Shown: positions 18,176-24,973 of the stretch, piece by piece
Numbering within the stretch: position 1 is the stretch's first letter
Layout: each line of letters begins with the position of its first letter
DNA from: Aromatoleum toluolicum
GTDB taxonomy: Bacteria; Pseudomonadota; Gammaproteobacteria; Burkholderiales; Rhodocyclaceae
Reading direction: 5' to 3'
Assembly: GCF_012911005.2 (NCBI RefSeq)
Contig: NZ_WTVS01000010.1
Location: 1 to 64,000 of the forward strand
Length of the DNA: 64,000 nt
Made by a program: the position numbers and the translations under genes
Notes under the pieces: model-generated
Seen by the model: the letters and a program-made list of their open reading frames with translations, nothing else
Told to the model about the DNA's origin: nothing
Databases searched by the model: none

Positions 18176-19633
18176 ATGAGCAGATCGGATTGGGAAGTCG
18201 TCATCGGGCTGGAAGTGCATGCCCAGCTCAACACCGCGTCGAAGATCTTTTCCGGCGCCAGCACCGCCTTCGGCGCCGCGCCGAACGTGCAGGCCTGCGC
18301 CGTCGACATCGCCCTGCCGGGCGTGCTGCCGGTGCTCAACCGCGGCGCCGTCGAGCGCGCGATCCGCTTCGGCCTGGCGATCGGCGCGAACGTCGCCTCG
18401 AAGAGCGTGTTCGCGCGCAAGAACTACTTTTACCCCGACCTCCCCAAGGGCTACCAGATCAGCCAGTTCGAGCTGCCGGTGGTGCAGGGCGGCGAAATCA
18501 CGATCCGCGTCGGCGAAGGTGACAAAGCCTACGAGAAGACCGTGCAACTCACCCGCGCCCACCTCGAGGAAGACGCCGGCAAATCGCTGCACGAAGACTT
18601 CCACGGCATGAGCGGCATCGACCTCAACCGTGCCGGCACGCCGCTGCTGGAAATCGTCTCCGAGCCCGACATGCGCTCCTCCGCCGAGGCCGTCGCCTAC
18701 GCCCGCGCGCTGCACGCGCTGGTGCGCTGGATCGACATCTGTGACGGCAACATGCAGGAAGGCTCCTTCCGCTGCGACGCCAACGTCTCCGTGCGCCGCC
18801 CCGGCGGACCGCTCGGCACGCGCCGCGAGATCAAGAACCTGAACTCCTTCCGCTTCCTGCAGCAGGCGATCGATTTCGAGGTGCAGTGGCAGATCGACAC
18901 CATCGAAGACGGCGGCAGGATCCAGCAGGCGACCGTGCTGTTCGATCCCGACACCGGCGAGACGCGCATGATGCGCTCGAAGGAAGACGCGCACGACTAC
19001 CGCTACTTCCCCGACCCGGACCTGCTGCCGCTGGTCATCTCGCCCGAGTGGAAGGCGCGCGTCGCTTCGGAGATGCCCGAATTGCCCGGCGCGATGAAGG
19101 CACGCTTCATGGAGCAGTGGGGCCTCTCCGCCTATGACGCGACGACCCTCACCGCGTCGAAGGAAGTCGCCACCTTCTACCAGGCGACCGTCGACGCCGC
19201 CGGCGTGGCGCTGGCGAAGCCCTGCGCCAACTGGGTCATGGGCGATCTCGCCGCGCGCGTGAACAAGGCCGAAATGGACATTTCGGCGTCACCCGTAACG
19301 CCCGCCCAGCTCGCCGGCCTCGTGGCGCGCATCGCCGACGGCACAATCTCCAACAACATCGGCAAGAAGGTGTTCGAAGCCTTGTGGAACCGCGAGGGCG
19401 AGAGCGCCGACGCCATCATCGAGGCCCAAGGTCTGCGCCAGACCAACGACGCCGGCGCGATCGAGGCGATGATCGACGAAGTGCTCGCGGCCAACCAGAA
19501 GTCGGTCGAGGAATTCCGCGCCGGCAAGGACAAGGCCTTCAACGCGCTCGTCGGCCAGGTCATGAAGGCGAGCAAGGGCAAGGCCAACCCGGCGCAGGTC
19601 AACGAACTCTTGAAACGCAAGCTAGAAGGCTGA
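18176..19633 (+). CDS. gatB: Asp-tRNA(Asn)/Glu-tRNA(Gln) amidotransferase subunit B
   Basis: GatB binds the misacylated tRNA and activates its carboxylate for amidation. The 485-residue chain has the opening [13 protein letters not shown], the [11 protein letters not shown] and [12 protein letters not shown] motifs, and the C-terminal YqeY-like tail domain (NKKSVEEF-type [14 protein letters not shown] and [12 protein letters not shown]). The gene lies 27 bp after the lipoprotein gene. The integrated element begins 38 bp after its stop. Confidence 0.96.
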
Positions 19634-19671
19634 AACCACCCTTTCACCGCCACACCCTCGGGGGACGCGCG

Positions 19672-19699
19672 ATGTGCCAGCTCCTCGGAATGAACTGCA
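19672..19699 (+). repeat. Left 28-bp direct repeat (attL)
   Basis: It runs from ATGTGCCAGC to TGAACTGCA and is identical to 24152-24179. The flanking bases differ (G before and C after here; T before and A after in the right copy), so the identity is exactly 28 bp. Upstream lies what should be the gene's original leader, including a GGGGGA ribosome site at about 19660-19665. Confidence 0.9.
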
Positions 19700-19710
19700 C
19701 ACGCAGGTAA
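19672..19710 (+). pseudogene. Detached 5' end of the amidotransferase gene, now a 12-codon minigene
   Basis: Reading from the original start gives MCQLLGMNCTRR and then a TAA supplied by the element. The first nine codons are those of the intact gene at 24152; the rest is element DNA. The original ribosome site is still in front, so the peptide could be translated from gatB read-through. It is a by-product of integration and has no expected function. Confidence 0.8.
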
Positions 19711-19749
19711 ATTTTATTACTTATCAACGGCTTAAACAAGCCTGCGTGT
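19699..19749. repeat. Inverted repeat at the inner edge of attL
   Basis: ACACGCAGG (19699-19707) and CCTGCGTGT (19741-19749) form a perfect 9-bp inverted repeat across a 33-bp AT-rich spacer. It begins on the last base of the direct repeat. It could be part of the integrase recognition sites, or a hairpin after the minigene. No matching copy was found at the right end. Confidence 0.45.
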
Positions 19750-19936
19750 CCCTCTGTGTTACCTCATAGGGGTAATGTCGTGTCGCCCGGAAGTGCCACC
19801 TGCAACTTGCGCCCTTCCGGCGTACCCTGCATGCGCATGTAAATGCGCCGCACTCGCGCGAGACTCCCTCCCATAAGGCAGGCAGGACGATTTCCCCCGT
19901 ACCCCTGCCTTTCTGGGTCTCGGGGCTTACCAGCGG

Positions 19937-20500
19937 TCAGGCTGAAGGCTTGCATGCTCTCTTCACCGATGCAGAAGAGATCCCGAAATGCTCTGCCGTG
20001 GCCCTGATGCTGGCCTGATTCTCCTTCCGCCACGACACCACCGCTGCATCATCGATAACCTTCTCGCGGCCTAGGTTCTTCCCCTCTGCTCTCGCTCGTT
20101 CGATGCCAGCCATCTGCCGGGCCTTGATGTTGTCCCTCTCTAGCTCCGCCACTGCGGCAAGCATGGTGAGCATCAACTTACCTGCAGGGGTAGCGAGGTC
20201 GAAGCCCTCCCGCATGGACACCACCGACACCCCCTTGGCTCTCAGAGCTTCCACCGTGGTAAGGACATCGATCGTGTTTCGCCCAAGCCGGTCTATGGCC
20301 ACGACGACCACCGAATCCCCATCCCTGACATAGCTCAATAGCGCGCCCATAGCGGGCCGCTGGGCAGCCGGAATACCTCCGGAGACCCCCTCCTCCGAAA
20401 ACCACTTCGAGACGGCATAGCGGGCCTGTATGGCCCTGCGCTGGTTCTCCGTGGTCTGGTCATCACTGCTGACCCGGACGTATGCGATCACGCTCGACAT
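19937..20500 (-). CDS. Serine recombinase, resolvase/invertase family
   Basis: This 187-residue small serine recombinase has the catalytic serine at about S11 (YVRVSSDDQ), active-site arginines in IDRLGRNT (R71, R74) and the long E-helix start LAAVAELERDNIKAR. A short C-terminal helix-turn-helix (ASIRATAEHFGISSASVKR) should bind DNA. It starts with ATG and has AAAGGGG 6 bp upstream. Beside a tyrosine integrase it may resolve multimers, invert DNA or regulate the element. Close relatives are typical of Tn3-type resolvases and plasmid recombinases. Confidence 0.9.
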   Translation of the reverse strand: MSSVIAYVRVSSDDQTTENQRRAIQARYAVSKWFSEEGVSGGIPAAQRPAMGALLSYVRDGDSVVVVAIDRLGRNTIDVLTTVEALRAKGVSVVSMREGFDLATPAGKLMLTMLAAVAELERDNIKARQMAGIERARAEGKNLGREKVIDDAAVVSWRKENQASIRATAEHFGISSASVKRACKPSA

Positions 20501-20519
20501 GTTTTGCCCCTTTGTGCAT

Positions 20520-20615
20520 AGCTCACAACCTATGGCTCATATGCTAACGCTAGCTCACATTTAAATCAACACAAATGAGCCATCACTGCACGGTGTCGTG
20601 GAGCATGGCTCAAAT
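20520..20615. promoter_or_regulatory. Cluster of five GCTCA motifs between divergent element genes
   Basis: GCTCA cores occur at 20521-20525, 20535-20539, 20553-20557 and 20608-20612 on the plus strand and at 20576-20580 on the minus strand. Three lie in a longer shared word: ATGGCTCATAT, ATGGCTCATTT (minus) and ATGGCTCAAAT. The other two read AGCTCACAA and AGCTCACAT. They fill the region before the serine recombinase start, so they may be its crossover/accessory sites or operators. The rest of the 306-bp gap (20501-20806) holds a weak 70-codon frame that I do not support as a gene. Confidence 0.5.
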
Positions 20616-20806
20616 GGCAAACCTTATGCGCCACATTCAACCGTGAGCACCTACAGCCTAGGAGCCTCCCGCAAAGAGTTGCAGGTAATGGACAGGAACG
20701 CGACTCGCACTCGCCCTTGTTTCCCACTTCACCAAGTCAATCCCGCTGATTCTTCTGCCGTGATCGCTGGACCAACCCTAGCTTTGGGATTGGGCCTTGT
20801 GGTTGG

Positions 20807-21691
20807 GTGAGAACCAGCAGTCACCGCAGAGGAATCAAATTGAGATTCAATGAGAAAGAGATATGCACGCGCAGTGATTTTGCTACTCAAATGCAGCGTG
20901 AAAATCATTCGCTAGTCAAGGAAGCCTTGAAGGAATTGCAGAACGGCAAGTCGCTCGAAGAACTGTCGTCCAAGTATGGGTTTGATCGCGCACTCAAAGC
21001 ACAGGAACTTCAGAAACAATCAACCCCCACTCGGCAACAAGTTCTTATGAGGCATCAACGCCGAACCCGCGAAGTCAATGCGGAGTTCGGAAAAGAATTA
21101 TGGCAGGCGGGGATGGCCGTGCATCAGCATAGCGTTGAAGACTTCAAGCATGTGCTGATAACCGCATTGGATTTGGTGAAAGCTAGCGAATGCGTCTCAG
21201 CCTCCGCCGCTTTGACGCAAGCATTCCCAGACAGCGACGGCAAAGCGAAAAGCATCGGGAATAGCAGACATCACCGGCGAATCACCGAAGCATTGATATC
21301 CACCGAGATCATGGAGCACCCAGCCCTTGCGACTTTCGTGTCACGTAGCATGCGCGAGTACAGGCGTTGCACTCGCGTGAAATGCTTTCGGGATGCGCTC
21401 GGATTCGTCCTTGAAGGAGTCCGCATCCATAATCGGATTGCGACACTGGAAGCATCCAATGCCCGGAAGGACAAAACGATCACGGAGCTAGAAGCACGAA
21501 TTTCCATTCTTGAAGCTCAGATCGGCGCACCTAGGATGACCGATACCGTTGATGACGTTGAGCCCTACACAATCAAGGCAAGAGTTCTTGCGTTGCGCGA
21601 CCTTGGATACAAACCTCAGCAGATCGCGACAACTCTTAAGGTCGAATACGAACGAGTGAAAAGCATCATACGCCGGGGGAAACAGAACTAG
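20807..21691 (+). CDS. Element protein of unknown function with coiled coil and C-terminal HTH-like segment
   Basis: Up to 294 residues, mostly helical and rich in charged residues. Residues about 219-248 have the heptad pattern of a coiled coil (IATLEASNARKDKTITELEA). The last 45 residues (KARVLALRDLGYKPQQIATTL...VKSIIRRG) look like a helix-turn-helix ending in a basic helix. I do not recognise the family; DNA binding is inferred. The start is uncertain: GTG at 20807 has no ribosome site, while TTG at 20840 follows AGAGGA at 7 bp and may be the true start (283 residues). Candidate roles are replication, excision control or regulation. Confidence 0.6.
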   Translation: MRTSSHRRGIKLRFNEKEICTRSDFATQMQRENHSLVKEALKELQNGKSLEELSSKYGFDRALKAQELQKQSTPTRQQVLMRHQRRTREVNAEFGKELWQAGMAVHQHSVEDFKHVLITALDLVKASECVSASAALTQAFPDSDGKAKSIGNSRHHRRITEALISTEIMEHPALATFVSRSMREYRRCTRVKCFRDALGFVLEGVRIHNRIATLEASNARKDKTITELEARISILEAQIGAPRMTDTVDDVEPYTIKARVLALRDLGYKPQQIATTLKVEYERVKSIIRRGKQN

Positions 21692-21822
21692 CGACGCGGG
21701 GGACAAACCGGGGAGGGGAATGATGACCCGGTTTTGCCCCCTCCCACCGTGCGATTTTCTATTACTTCGTAAAGAAGTAATCGAACTTCGAAAAGCACCC
21801 GTTACCACGCTCCGACGCCAAC

Positions 21823-22464
21823 TTACCCTTTGATACGACCGTACTTCACAAAACGAAATATTGAAGCAAGGAACGCACAAAACGTCCAGATCAGAATGAC
21901 TGCAATAGACGGGACAAAGAACGCCACCCACGTGACGATTTGCTGACGTGACACGAACTCATCATTCAACTCCGATGCGCTCGTAAATATATCTTCCATA
22001 CTTTTTTGAATGGTCTGATCCTTAAAGTAAACGGGCCCAGCGCTAAAATAATCACAGTTAATAATAAATTCAAACATCCCGCCCGCACCCCGCGGCCATG
22101 AGTCTATGCGACAGCTACTTCGTACATGCTCCGTCGGCGCGGACCCGACCAAATGAATTTTTTGTTCCTTCTTGGTATTTTGATCAACGATCGTCCCAAC
22201 TAAATCGCCACGCAGACGGTGTCCCCAAAAACCCCTGCCACCCTTAAATGTTGATATGCTTATACCATTACCAGAAACGAAGTCCCATTTTTGTGCTTCA
22301 GAGCCTAAACCGACCTCATGACAGCGCCCTTCTGACAAATTGCAATAACCGAAATAATCCATAGGGTAAAAATAGCGGTACCCGTCACTTGACAGCCACA
22401 ATCCCGCTAACCCAGAAATCACCGCAAGTACAATTGCAAGACGTTTCTTCTGCTGACGATCCAA
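21823..22464 (-). CDS. Element-encoded two-TM membrane protein of unknown function
   Basis: This 213-residue protein has a positively charged N-terminus, a membrane helix at about 9-26, a domain of some 150 residues, a second helix at about 180-204 and a short basic tail. The positive-inside rule puts the middle domain in the periplasm. That domain holds four cysteines (GYCNLSEGRCHE, SSCRID, INCDYF), enough for two disulphides. Translation probably starts at TTG 22464, with GGGGA 7 bp upstream; no ATG would keep the first helix. It is the most AT-rich gene in the window, and looks like the cargo gene. No family is recognised. Confidence 0.6.
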   Translation of the reverse strand: MDRQQKKRLAIVLAVISGLAGLWLSSDGYRYFYPMDYFGYCNLSEGRCHEVGLGSEAQKWDFVSGNGISISTFKGGRGFWGHRLRGDLVGTIVDQNTKKEQKIHLVGSAPTEHVRSSCRIDSWPRGAGGMFEFIINCDYFSAGPVYFKDQTIQKSMEDIFTSASELNDEFVSRQQIVTWVAFFVPSIAVILIWTFCAFLASIFRFVKYGRIKG

Positions 22465-22557
22465 GGCTTATCCCCACCCAAAGAGTGACAAAATCATTGT
22501 TTCACAAGTGTCTCGCAATCTGTCTATTGCCTAGACATCTCACACTAGCACGCCATA

Positions 22558-24021
22558 TCACCTTCCCTCGATCTCTGCCCTTACGCACATGAGCGCATCA
22601 AGCCCCCCTTCCAAAGGAATACCAGAGCCGTATATCGCCGCCACACCTTGGACGTTATGCCCCAATATCCGCTCTCGAATTTCGAAATCAATGCCTACAT
22701 GCTGCGCAACGTCCTTCCATGAATGACGCATTTGATACAGAGTATATCCTCGCGTGATCTTCTTAAAACGCGTATTCAGCGACGTCACGAGGCCGCGTAC
22801 AGAGCGGATATTCTGTCCGAGCCATACAAGCAGTTCCCTCAAGGCATCGACATCTACAGCACTTCGCACGCCATCACTCAACGGAATGTCTCGCTCTGAA
22901 CTTTTATTCTTCCCGTTTTGAATACGAAAGTAGAGCCCGGACACCCCACGAAAATCTTGCTTCTGGGCCAATGCCGCTTGATTGGCTCCGAACAACTCAG
23001 CGGGCCTCATGCCGGTGTATGCGAGCATCTGGACCACAATACAATCGAATTGCGAGGCTCCCCCGTCGTAGCCCTTACGGACCTTTGAACTGCGAGGCCT
23101 TTCGGCTAGAGCTGCCAAGGCTGCGCGAATGCTTTGCACTGGCATGCTCTCCTTGTCCCCGACACGTGGTTGCATGACCCCCTTAAGTTCGCGTATGGGA
23201 CGAGGTCTCAAGTCGGTTAGAACTTTCCTCAATGCTGATAAAGCAGCATCCTGTTGTCCCTTTACAGTGCGAGGTTGAACACGCTTCAGGTGCTCAAGGC
23301 TATGCGCCTGCAGGGCGTCTTGAATGTCTCTCGCAGACGTTCCCGACACTCGCAGCTTCGACAGCACCCGCTCTGCCACCTTGTAACGAGCCTCGCTTAC
23401 TTCGTGCTTGTATAGCGCCAGTGCTTCCCGCCGCAATGCTTCCCAGCTTTCAAACTGGGCCTGACCTTCATTGGTTGGCAAGATCGCACCGTGCGCACTC
23501 CCCCTCACAAGTTCCGGGATGCTCTCCGCATTTAACACCGCATCGATTCCGCGGACGTATGCCTTAGCTTCAGCACCAATTGCGGGGCCGGGGTAACCCA
23601 TAGGTCGGTCGATCTGGGATTCGTAGACATCCCGCCACCGCATGACCCTCTCCCGCCATCCGCTCGGGTTGTTTTGCTGTTCCTCGATCACTCTGTGCGC
23701 GGCAAGCCTGACCTGCTTGGGCAACCGGGCAAGGATGTCCTGAGGAGAGCTTCCCGGAGGATGTATGGCCTCTTCGTATGGTCCTGCGGTCAATTCGTCG
23801 TGCTGAGTACAAAGCTCCTGAGTGGCTCGCAATGCCCCTTCACACGCCGAATCAAACTCGACCGAGACCTGACGGGCCAACCGCTGGGCTTCTCGCTTTA
23901 CATGAGTTCTCAAACTTTTCATGAAGCACGCCTTACCCAGCACGATGGACACAGCTTTCGGGTATCGCCTGCGGTAGTACCATAGGCCAGATTCTTTCTT
24001 CTGATGTAAGAACTCGGTCAA
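22558..24021 (-). CDS. int: Tyrosine recombinase (site-specific integrase)
   Basis: This 487-residue phage-type integrase has an N-terminal GLWYYRRRYPKAV segment typical of integrases of small genomic islands and a C-terminal catalytic domain: Arg339 (YTGMRPAEL), Lys373 region (NGKNKSSERDIPL), Arg432 in YQMRHSW, His455 in ILGHNV and nucleophile Tyr464 (AAIYGSG). The usual His of the HxxR box is Tyr429 here, a tolerated variant. It starts at TTG 24021 behind an excellent GGGAGGTGA site. It lies 130 bp from attR and reads away from it, so it should make the element's integration and excision reaction. Confidence 0.92.
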   Translation of the reverse strand: MTEFLHQKKESGLWYYRRRYPKAVSIVLGKACFMKSLRTHVKREAQRLARQVSVEFDSACEGALRATQELCTQHDELTAGPYEEAIHPPGSSPQDILARLPKQVRLAAHRVIEEQQNNPSGWRERVMRWRDVYESQIDRPMGYPGPAIGAEAKAYVRGIDAVLNAESIPELVRGSAHGAILPTNEGQAQFESWEALRREALALYKHEVSEARYKVAERVLSKLRVSGTSARDIQDALQAHSLEHLKRVQPRTVKGQQDAALSALRKVLTDLRPRPIRELKGVMQPRVGDKESMPVQSIRAALAALAERPRSSKVRKGYDGGASQFDCIVVQMLAYTGMRPAELFGANQAALAQKQDFRGVSGLYFRIQNGKNKSSERDIPLSDGVRSAVDVDALRELLVWLGQNIRSVRGLVTSLNTRFKKITRGYTLYQMRHSWKDVAQHVGIDFEIRERILGHNVQGVAAIYGSGIPLEGGLDALMCVRAEIEGR

Positions 24022-24151
24022 AGTATCACCTCCCTGTGTTTCGGTTCACGGAGTCTCGTGTGTAACCTACCGCAAGGAACCATATCATTCGCAGATTGCC
24101 CATGAACAAAGGCTCTAAGCACGACACGATATCACGCGACGAGGCTGAAAT

Positions 24152-24179
24152 ATGTGCCAGCTCCTCGGAATGAACTGCA
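24152..24179 (+). repeat. Right 28-bp direct repeat (attR), inside the intact gene
   Basis: It is identical to 19672-19699 and forms the first 28 bases of the intact amidotransferase gene. Upstream sequence belongs to the element and supplies a new ribosome site, GAGG 7 bp before the ATG. Confidence 0.9.
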
Positions 24180-24973
24180 ACGTGCCGACGGACATCTGCT
24201 TCTCGTTCGCCGGCTTCCAGGCGCGCGGCGGCGCCACCGACGTGCACGCCGACGGCTGGGGCATCGCCTTCTTCGAGGGACGCGGCGTGCGCCTCTTCCT
24301 CGACCCCCAGCCCAGCGCCTTGTCGCCGGTCGCGGAACTGGTGCGCAGCTACCCGATCCGCTCGCTCAACGTCATCGCGCACATCCGCAAGGCCACCCAG
24401 GGTCAGGTCACGCTCGACAACACCCACCCCTTCCAGCGCGAACTGTGGGGGAGCTACTGGATCTTCGCGCACAACGGCAACCTGCTCGACTACGCACCGC
24501 ACTTCGACGGCCGTTTCCTGCCGGTCGGCAGCACCGACTCGGAGTCCGCGTTCTGCGACCTCCTGCAGCACCTCGCCGCCGAATTCCCCGACGGCCCGCC
24601 GCCGGCCGAAGCCCTGTTCGCCGCCCTGCGCCGGCTCGCGATCCGCATCGGCGCGCACGGCCCGTTCAACTTCCTGCTGTCGAACGGCGAATACCTCTTC
24701 GCCCATTGCTCGACCAAACTCACCTACATCATCCGCCAGGCACCGTTCGCGACCGCGCACCTCTCCGACCAGGACCTCAGCGTCGATTTCAGCCGGCTCA
24801 CGACCCCGGCCGACCGCGTCGCCGTGATCGCGACCGCGCCGCTGACCGACAACGAGGTGTGGCACGCGATCCCGCCCGGCACCCTGCTCGCGTTCCGGCA
24901 CGGCGCAATCGAGACCCTGGGCGAAGCGACGACCATCGCCGGCAATCCCGCCGCGGGCGCGGGCAGCGTGTAG
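24152..24973 (+). CDS. Class II glutamine amidotransferase (YafJ-like)
   Basis: This 273-residue Ntn-hydrolase releases ammonia from glutamine. After Met removal Cys2 becomes the nucleophile (MCQLLGMNC). Other active-site blocks are AHIRKATQG, the oxyanion-hole WIFAHNGNL and STDSESAF. No second catalytic domain is attached, so the partner or product is unknown. The protein is complete, but its leader now comes from the element. Before integration it would have lain 38 bp after gatB, probably in the same operon, with the HIT gene and the next gene behind it. Confidence 0.92.
   Translation: MCQLLGMNCNVPTDICFSFAGFQARGGATDVHADGWGIAFFEGRGVRLFLDPQPSALSPVAELVRSYPIRSLNVIAHIRKATQGQVTLDNTHPFQRELWGSYWIFAHNGNLLDYAPHFDGRFLPVGSTDSESAFCDLLQHLAAEFPDGPPPAEALFAALRRLAIRIGAHGPFNFLLSNGEYLFAHCSTKLTYIIRQAPFATAHLSDQDLSVDFSRLTTPADRVAVIATAPLTDNEVWHAIPPGTLLAFRHGAIETLGEATTIAGNPAAGAGSV

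What the first reader, a model, noticed from the sequence alone, without database searches (positions are those of the whole stretch)
19672..24179. Small integrative element inserted at the first codons of a glutamine amidotransferase gene
Seen: a 28-bp perfect direct repeat at 19672-19699 and 24152-24179, a tyrosine integrase and serine recombinase between them, AT-richer DNA, and only one full copy of the amidotransferase gene. Known: tyrosine integrases leave such repeats. Inference: this integrase uses a protein-coding start, not a tRNA gene, as attB. I do not know of a described element family with this target; it may be new.
Basis: partly seen in the sequence, partly recalled or inferred. 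Interest (0 to 1): 0.85.

Follow-up and report, generated by a model that had tools for sequence, protein, structure and literature searches.

The report
Small integrative element at amidotransferase start
A 4.5-kb piece of mobile DNA has slotted itself, with a tyrosine integrase, exactly at the start codon of a glutamine amidotransferase gene and rebuilds that start; distant relatives in other bacteria of the same family sit at the same spot, so this looks like a small family of site-specific elements that we did not find described.

Summary
A 28-bp exact direct repeat (19672-19699, 24152-24179) brackets a 4,480-bp, G+C-poorer segment with a tyrosine integrase and a serine recombinase. Three integrases, 48-51% identical to this one (genus g62, same family), also sit at the start of the same gene. 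Two of those elements have 37- and 38-bp exact repeats that again begin at the ATG; the third has only one end assembled. New anatomy: TGTGTNACCT occurs only twice in the 64-kb window, once near each end of the element, and at matching offsets in the relatives; these are probably integrase arm sites. A helix-turn-helix/coiled-coil protein is also conserved. Protein-coding 5' ends are known integration targets (dusA, prfC), so the kind is known; this integrase subfamily and target were not found in our literature searches. Mobility, excision and a replacement promoter are inferred, not shown.

The parts
19672..24151 (.). Integrative element, 4,480 bp (equally 19700-24179; the crossover lies somewhere in the 28-bp repeat)
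   Evidence: 28-bp exact repeat; empty sites in relatives
19672..19699 (+). attL core repeat; remains of the original gene start (12-codon stub)
24152..24179 (+). attR core repeat = codons 1-9 of the amidotransferase, including Cys2
19755..19764 (+). Candidate arm-type integrase site, left end (TGTGTTACCT)
19792..19801 (+). Weaker outer candidate arm site, left end (2 mismatches; matches this weak also occur by chance)
24022..24031 (+). Weaker outer candidate arm site, right end, directly upstream of int (2 mismatches; same caution)
24059..24068 (+). Candidate arm-type integrase site, right end (TGTGTAACCT)
19937..20500 (-). Small serine recombinase (resolvase/invertase type), 187 aa
   Evidence: PF00239, phrog_125
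20807..21691 (+). Conserved element protein: long coiled coil and C-terminal helix-turn-helix, 294 aa (start codon uncertain)
   Evidence: homologues in 3 relatives, 31-34% identity; weak HTH hits; low-confidence model
21823..22464 (-). Hypothetical protein, 213 aa, probable membrane segments by eye; no obvious counterpart in the relatives by eye (cargo slot)
   Evidence: no family hit
22558..24021 (-). Tyrosine integrase, 487 aa, DUF6538 N-terminus
24152..24973 (+). Target gene: class II glutamine amidotransferase (GATase_4; YafJ-like by recall), start rebuilt by the element
18176..19633 (+). Left flanking gene, gatB by recall; ends 38 nt before the original start of the target

Best explanation
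A small site-specific integrative element whose tyrosine integrase recombines an attP carrying the first codons of the gene with the matching start of a chromosomal class II glutamine amidotransferase gene. SHOWN from sequence: the repeat, the precise empty site, the same target for homologous integrases in another genus, two conserved motif copies at near-fixed distances from the core, and an unchanged protein start after insertion. INFERRED: Int binds the core through its catalytic part and the TGTGTNACCT sites through its N-terminal DUF6538 part; excision gives a circle; the element's right end replaces the promoter and ribosome-binding site cut away with gatB; the helix-turn-helix protein acts as directionality factor or regulator; the serine recombinase resolves multimers or inverts DNA. 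Passage between cells would be by borrowed means, since no transfer or packaging gene was recognised.
For: Repeat and genes. Empty site through the join in 8 of 16 genus genomes, 15 of 16 clearly uninserted. Same target in G752 (38-bp exact repeat, spacing 6404), HGW-Betaproteobacteria-6 (37-bp, spacing 7737) and UBA5582 (right end only). For the G752 join one alignment crosses the junction in 2 of 3 uninserted relatives, and the third has a different spacer; for the HGW-6 join one crosses it in 3 of 3. Integrase residues R339, K371, R432, H455, Y464 are invariant in 4 of 4 (their role as catalytic set is recalled; the usual first His position holds Tyr429). Motif TGTGTNACCT: exactly one exact copy near each end in 3 of 3 complete elements and one at the available right end of the fourth, at -91 to -93 and +82 to +83 from the ATG; only 2 in 64 kb, both in the element, 0.13 expected; 0.13-0.28% of resampled 200-bp ends hold one. 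Patchy: integrase in 2 of 395 family genomes (own included), 3 of 76 of genus g62.
Against: No circle or excision data. The sigma-70 scan found 0 promoter-like sites in 19600-24250 (2.7 expected by chance), so the replacement promoter is unproven. No excisionase recognised, also not among six small frames of the element scanned. The motif was found by eye and then counted; the G752 and HGW-6 integrases are 92% identical, so the independent lineages are three. One-mismatch copies also lie away from the ends (1 of 4 in G752, 3 of 7 in HGW-6) and two-mismatch copies are common (7 of 13 away from the ends in the window element), so the outer sites are weak. Only four elements known plus one integrase fragment without context (L025). 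Structure models were poor (pTM 0.40 and 0.32), and no solved structure matched the integrase profile.
Confidence: 0.9

Rival explanations
1. The repeat arose by duplication or homologous recombination of the gene start (for example from a passenger DNA carrying an amidotransferase fragment), and the integrase is a bystander.
For: Perfect identity over 28, 37 and 38 bp with cores that differ between hosts at third codon positions is more than a tyrosine recombinase overlap needs (recalled).
Against: Homologous integrases flank the same start codon in a different genus with the integrase in the same place and orientation and the same motif offsets; empty sites are precise.
Confidence: 0.04
2. 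A decayed or domesticated remnant: once mobile, now a fixed insertion whose main effect is to change expression of the amidotransferase.
For: No recognised transfer, replication or packaging gene; no Pfam, NCBIfam, PHROGs or PADLOC hit at E 0.001 for two of the four proteins; no promoter-like site recognised.
Against: Integrase frame intact with conserved residues, exact repeats, element absent from 15 of 15 other species of the genus whose site can be read, low G+C, relatives with different cargo.
Confidence: 0.2
3. A phage satellite that borrows a helper phage for transfer, the helix-turn-helix/coiled-coil protein acting in packaging or helper control.
For: Small size; integrase plus DNA-binding protein; a stretch of that protein resembles, by eye only, phage small-terminase segments; weak sub-threshold hits: 'terminase small subunit' in 1 of 4 members, E 0.03, Terminase_5 in 2 of 4, best E 0.0056, both of which may only reflect the helix-turn-helix. 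An AriA/Gabija/OLD-like ATPase is cargo in one relative.
Against: Window integrase has no match in the phage collection; 3 viral-contig scans found no relative; viral fold search has no match at E below 0.001; no capsid, packaging or replication gene recognised.
Confidence: 0.1

Closest known systems
dusA-specific genomic islands (Farrugia et al. 2015, PMC4482086: passages and section 18; IMEVchUSA3, PMC8409611: passages, abstract among them, and section 13)
   Same: Integrase, attB in the conserved 5' end of a housekeeping gene, direct repeats of about 21-28 bp, element supplies the new 5' end, cargo variable; promoter replacement shown by lacZ fusion for IMEVchUSA3.
   Different: Target here is a class II glutamine amidotransferase; the repeat begins at the start codon itself so the protein start does not change; complete elements here are 4.5-7.7 kb, against 23.5-37.2 kb for the dusA elements in Table 1 of PMC8409611; no PrtN-type factor or conjugation gene recognised. 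Sequence relation of the integrases not tested.
SXT/R391 elements at the 5' end of prfC (statement in the discussion of PMC8409611, passage)
   Different: Large conjugative elements (about 100 kb for SXT, abstract start of PMC2654960 in a listing); different target.
TIGER/Islander genomic islands (PMC12424338, whole text read)
   Same: Integrase-bearing islands mapped precisely, by TIGER through comparison with reference genomes; 43.4% in coding sequences; 58% of islands not readily put in the prophage or ICE categories.

Membership tests
Integrative elements specific for a protein-coding 5' end (dusA/prfC kind) | Exact or near-exact direct repeat, one copy at the gene's 5' end | tested here: met
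   28, 38 and 37 bp in 3 of 3 complete elements; the fourth has one end only
Integrative elements specific for a protein-coding 5' end (dusA/prfC kind) | Single-copy empty site in relatives | tested here: met
   8 of 16 align through, 7 of 16 uninserted with another spacer, 1 of 16 at a contig edge
Integrative elements specific for a protein-coding 5' end (dusA/prfC kind) | Reading frame rebuilt by the element | tested here: met
   273-aa frame from 24152 intact, first 9 codons within the repeat
Integrative elements specific for a protein-coding 5' end (dusA/prfC kind) | Element brings a working promoter | tested here: inconclusive
   0 sigma-70-like sites found; needs a reporter assay
Integrative elements specific for a protein-coding 5' end (dusA/prfC kind) | Excision to a circle | not testable with these tools
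   needs PCR or reads
dusA-specific islands | Integration in dusA | tested here: not met
   target is a PF13230 amidotransferase
dusA-specific islands | Integrase of the dusA-specific family | not tested
   no such integrase was fetched for comparison
ICE or IME | Relaxase or conjugation genes | tested here: not met
   no such Pfam hit among 4 window element proteins, 9 proteins of L023 and L024 and 4 of G752
Prophage | Phage structural or packaging genes | tested here: not met
   PHROGs hits at E 0.001 of the 4 window proteins are recombinases and DNA-binding only; the relatives' proteins were checked with Pfam only, save the helix-turn-helix protein
Tn3-like or IS element | Short target duplication and terminal inverted repeats | tested here: not met
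   repeat is native gene sequence present once in empty sites; no inverted repeat of 24 nt or more with an 18-nt exact seed in the window; shorter or imperfect ones not excluded by that search

The most novel reading that the evidence does not exclude
A previously undescribed family of minimal integrative elements defined by a DUF6538 integrase subfamily, an attachment core that begins at the start codon and holds the codon of the N-terminal Cys of a class II amidotransferase, a near-symmetric attP with directly repeated arm sites about 36 bp apart on each side, and a conserved coiled-coil/helix-turn-helix protein. By swapping the upstream region on entry and exit it would switch the amidotransferase between its gatB operon and element control.
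Probability: 0.4. Interest if true: 0.55.

Novelty: new member of a known kind. Interest (0 to 1): 0.42.

Why it matters
It adds a target that we did not find reported to the list of protein-coding start sites used by integrases, and gives a compact, testable integrase/att pair whose core lies in a gene start common in the bacterial family (a core-like pattern with up to one mismatch in 90 of 199 genomes, own included). It also offers a small system for asking whether element entry changes control of a housekeeping gene.

Tried and rejected
Weak integrase hits L002, L003, L004 (25-38% over parts: 4 of 369 class genomes matched, own included) were not counted as family: no amidotransferase match lies in the stretches held, including the longer L030 and L031. 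A first family search with the window integrase alone matched only the own genome, 1 of 199 at E 1e-10. L025 (Acidovorax integrase fragment, 60% over 159 residues, beside an IS21-like pair by recall) has no context and was left out of the target count. Seven genomes besides G000 have two core-pattern matches (G013, G086, G130, G161, G169, G174, G198), on different contigs or, in G086, about 3.5 Mb apart; I took them for second genes but did not check, and for those on different contigs a split insertion is not excluded. One search used a pattern with a wrongly guessed spacing and says nothing. No second core copy is in the held assembly of UBA5582 (G768, identified with L024 by equal coordinates), so its repeat is untested. 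Structure models of the helix-turn-helix protein and of the integrase were too poor to name a fold. Rfam: nothing at gathering threshold at 19300-24500. Plasmids: no match for the window integrase, the L023 integrase or the L023 helix-turn-helix protein; phages: no match for the window integrase (other proteins not tried). Literature: yafJ with genomic island and integrase 0 papers, DUF6538 0, amidotransferase with integration terms 1, yafJ with integrase and attachment 1 on cloning strains, listing only; a wider search held 1,667 papers of which 15 were listed. None of those listed describes this element, judged by title and abstract start. PMC5126054 (an island that carries an amidotransferase) was checked by passages; its repeats are at attL and PYCH_t170, by its label a tRNA gene. 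PMC12884075 and PMC8138268 were seen in passages only. The paper on precisely mapped targets (PMC7192596) is not held.
Full report
OBSERVATION. The window holds a 28-nt exact direct repeat at 19672-19699 and 24152-24179, 4,480 bp apart; no other direct repeat of 24 nt or more is reported for the 64 kb with an 18-nt exact seed. Between the copies the G+C is 0.533 against 0.681 elsewhere in the window. Four genes lie inside: a small serine recombinase (19937-20500, minus), a 294-aa protein without family (20807-21691, plus), a 213-aa protein without family (21823-22464, minus) and a 487-aa integrase (22558-24021, minus) with a DUF6538 N-terminus and an integrase-like C-terminal part. The right repeat copy is the first 28 bases of a 273-aa class II glutamine amidotransferase, PF13230 at 8.7e-126. 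The left copy opens a 12-codon stub. There is no tRNA gene.

EMPTY SITE. A search of the 17 genomes held for the genus (own included) with the left flank hit 17 of 17, and in the relatives the match often ran to the last base of the repeat. I joined window 19300-19671 to 24152-24700 in a script. In 8 of the 16 other genomes this join is matched by one alignment across the junction, at 86-96% identity. In 7 more, gatB and the amidotransferase lie next to each other with a different spacer (about 95-140 nt between the two alignments) and no insert; in 1 (G575) the contig begins about 135 bases before the core. So 15 of 16 are clearly uninserted and none shows the element. The repeat begins exactly at the ATG: upstream bases differ at once between the two ends.

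RELATIVES. One scan of the collection of 84,980 species genomes with the integrase gave 11 pattern matches and three relatives (six short peptide patterns, so close relatives only). HGW-Betaproteobacteria-6 (L023) and UBA5582 (L024) have the integrase divergent from an amidotransferase start; Acidovorax GW101-3H11 (L025) has a fragment only. A profile search of 395 family genomes matched 2: the window's own and one new one, G752, a single-contig genome of another genus. Searching that genus gave 3 of 76: G752, and two whose coordinates equal those of L023 and L024. The three integrases are 50, 48 and 51% identical to the window's (L023, L024, G752); L023 and G752 are 92% identical to each other, and L024 is 57% identical to both. 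The repeats are 37 bp in L023 (spacing 7737) and 38 bp in G752 (spacing 6404), again starting at the ATG. UBA5582's other end was not found in its assembly. The G752 join is crossed by one alignment in 2 of 3 uninserted relatives, and the third has a different spacer; the HGW-6 join is crossed in 3 of 3, with 13-62 gap positions. Thus three integrase lineages use the same start codon in two genera: 4 of 4 elements with context, 3 of 4 with both repeats.

ANATOMY. Aligning the ends shows TGTGTNACCT once near each end: in the window at 19755-19764 and 24059-24068, that is +83 and -93 from the ATG; in G752 and HGW-6 at +82 and -91; in UBA5582 at -92. All copies point the same way. It occurs nowhere else in the 64-kb window (0.13 expected), and a resampled 200-bp end holds it in 0.13-0.28% of trials. 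Weaker copies lie 36-37 bp further out on both sides in the three complete elements and at the right end of UBA5582. Against this: copies with one mismatch also lie away from the ends (1 of 4 in G752, 3 of 7 in HGW-6), and two-mismatch copies are common, so the outer sites are weak. I noticed the motif by eye before counting it, and two of the four elements are close kin, so I treat the inner pair as strong but not blind evidence. Fixed, repeated sites on both sides of the core are what arm-type sites of tyrosine integrases look like (recalled), and the DUF6538 N-terminus is the natural candidate to bind them (inference). The outer right site abuts the start of int.

GENE CONTENT. The integrase, the coiled-coil/helix-turn-helix protein (31-34% identity to the window's) and some serine recombinase are present in 4 of 4 elements; those of L023 and L024 are 33 and 31% identical to the window's and 25% to each other. 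The helix-turn-helix protein was found in 2 of 390 family genomes, the same two as the integrase. Other genes differ: L023 adds an AAA ATPase with AriA/Gabija/OLD-like hits. No relaxase, replication or phage structural gene was recognised by Pfam in 4 window, 9 L023/L024 and 4 G752 proteins; six small frames of the window element had no hit.

MECHANISM. Most likely the integrase recombines an attP that carries the first codons of the gene with the gene start, leaving the protein unchanged, Cys2 (the N-terminal nucleophile of class II amidotransferases, recalled) included. Before insertion the gene lies 38 nt after gatB and is probably read with it; after insertion it depends on the right end of the element. 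A scan found no sigma-70-like site in the element, so a replacement promoter is an inference by analogy with dusA, where it was shown (PMC8409611, section 13). The cores differ between hosts at third codon positions, yet each complete element's two copies are identical, which suggests recent movement only among close strains, or conversion of one copy by the other; I cannot tell which.

STANDING. Integration in coding sequences is common (43.4% of islands, PMC12424338), and 5'-end cases are known (PMC4482086; PMC8409611). So the kind is known. This target and integrase subfamily did not appear in searches (15 of 1,667 listed) and 74, but the main catalogue paper and data were not available.

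Noticed in passing
L023:13390-15195: The HGW-Betaproteobacteria-6 element carries an AAA ATPase with hits to AriA, GajA and Old models, a possible phage-defence cargo.
   Followed up: partly
window 19937-20500; L023:10497-11129; L024:10677-11393: The three element lineages have serine recombinases only 25-33% identical, with different C-terminal domains by Pfam, as if the gene were needed but exchangeable.
   Followed up: partly
window 19672-19699 / 24152-24179; L023 and L028 repeats: Attachment cores differ between hosts at third codon positions, but the two copies in each complete element are identical over 28-38 bp, more than an integrase overlap requires.
   Followed up: no
window 19700-19747: The left end has an inverted pair CACGCAGG ... 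CCTGCGTG just inside the core; not seen in the relatives by eye.
   Followed up: no
L025:534-3581: In Acidovorax GW101-3H11 an IS21-like pair of genes (by recall) lies next to a truncated related integrase; no attachment site was seen on the short contig.
   Followed up: no
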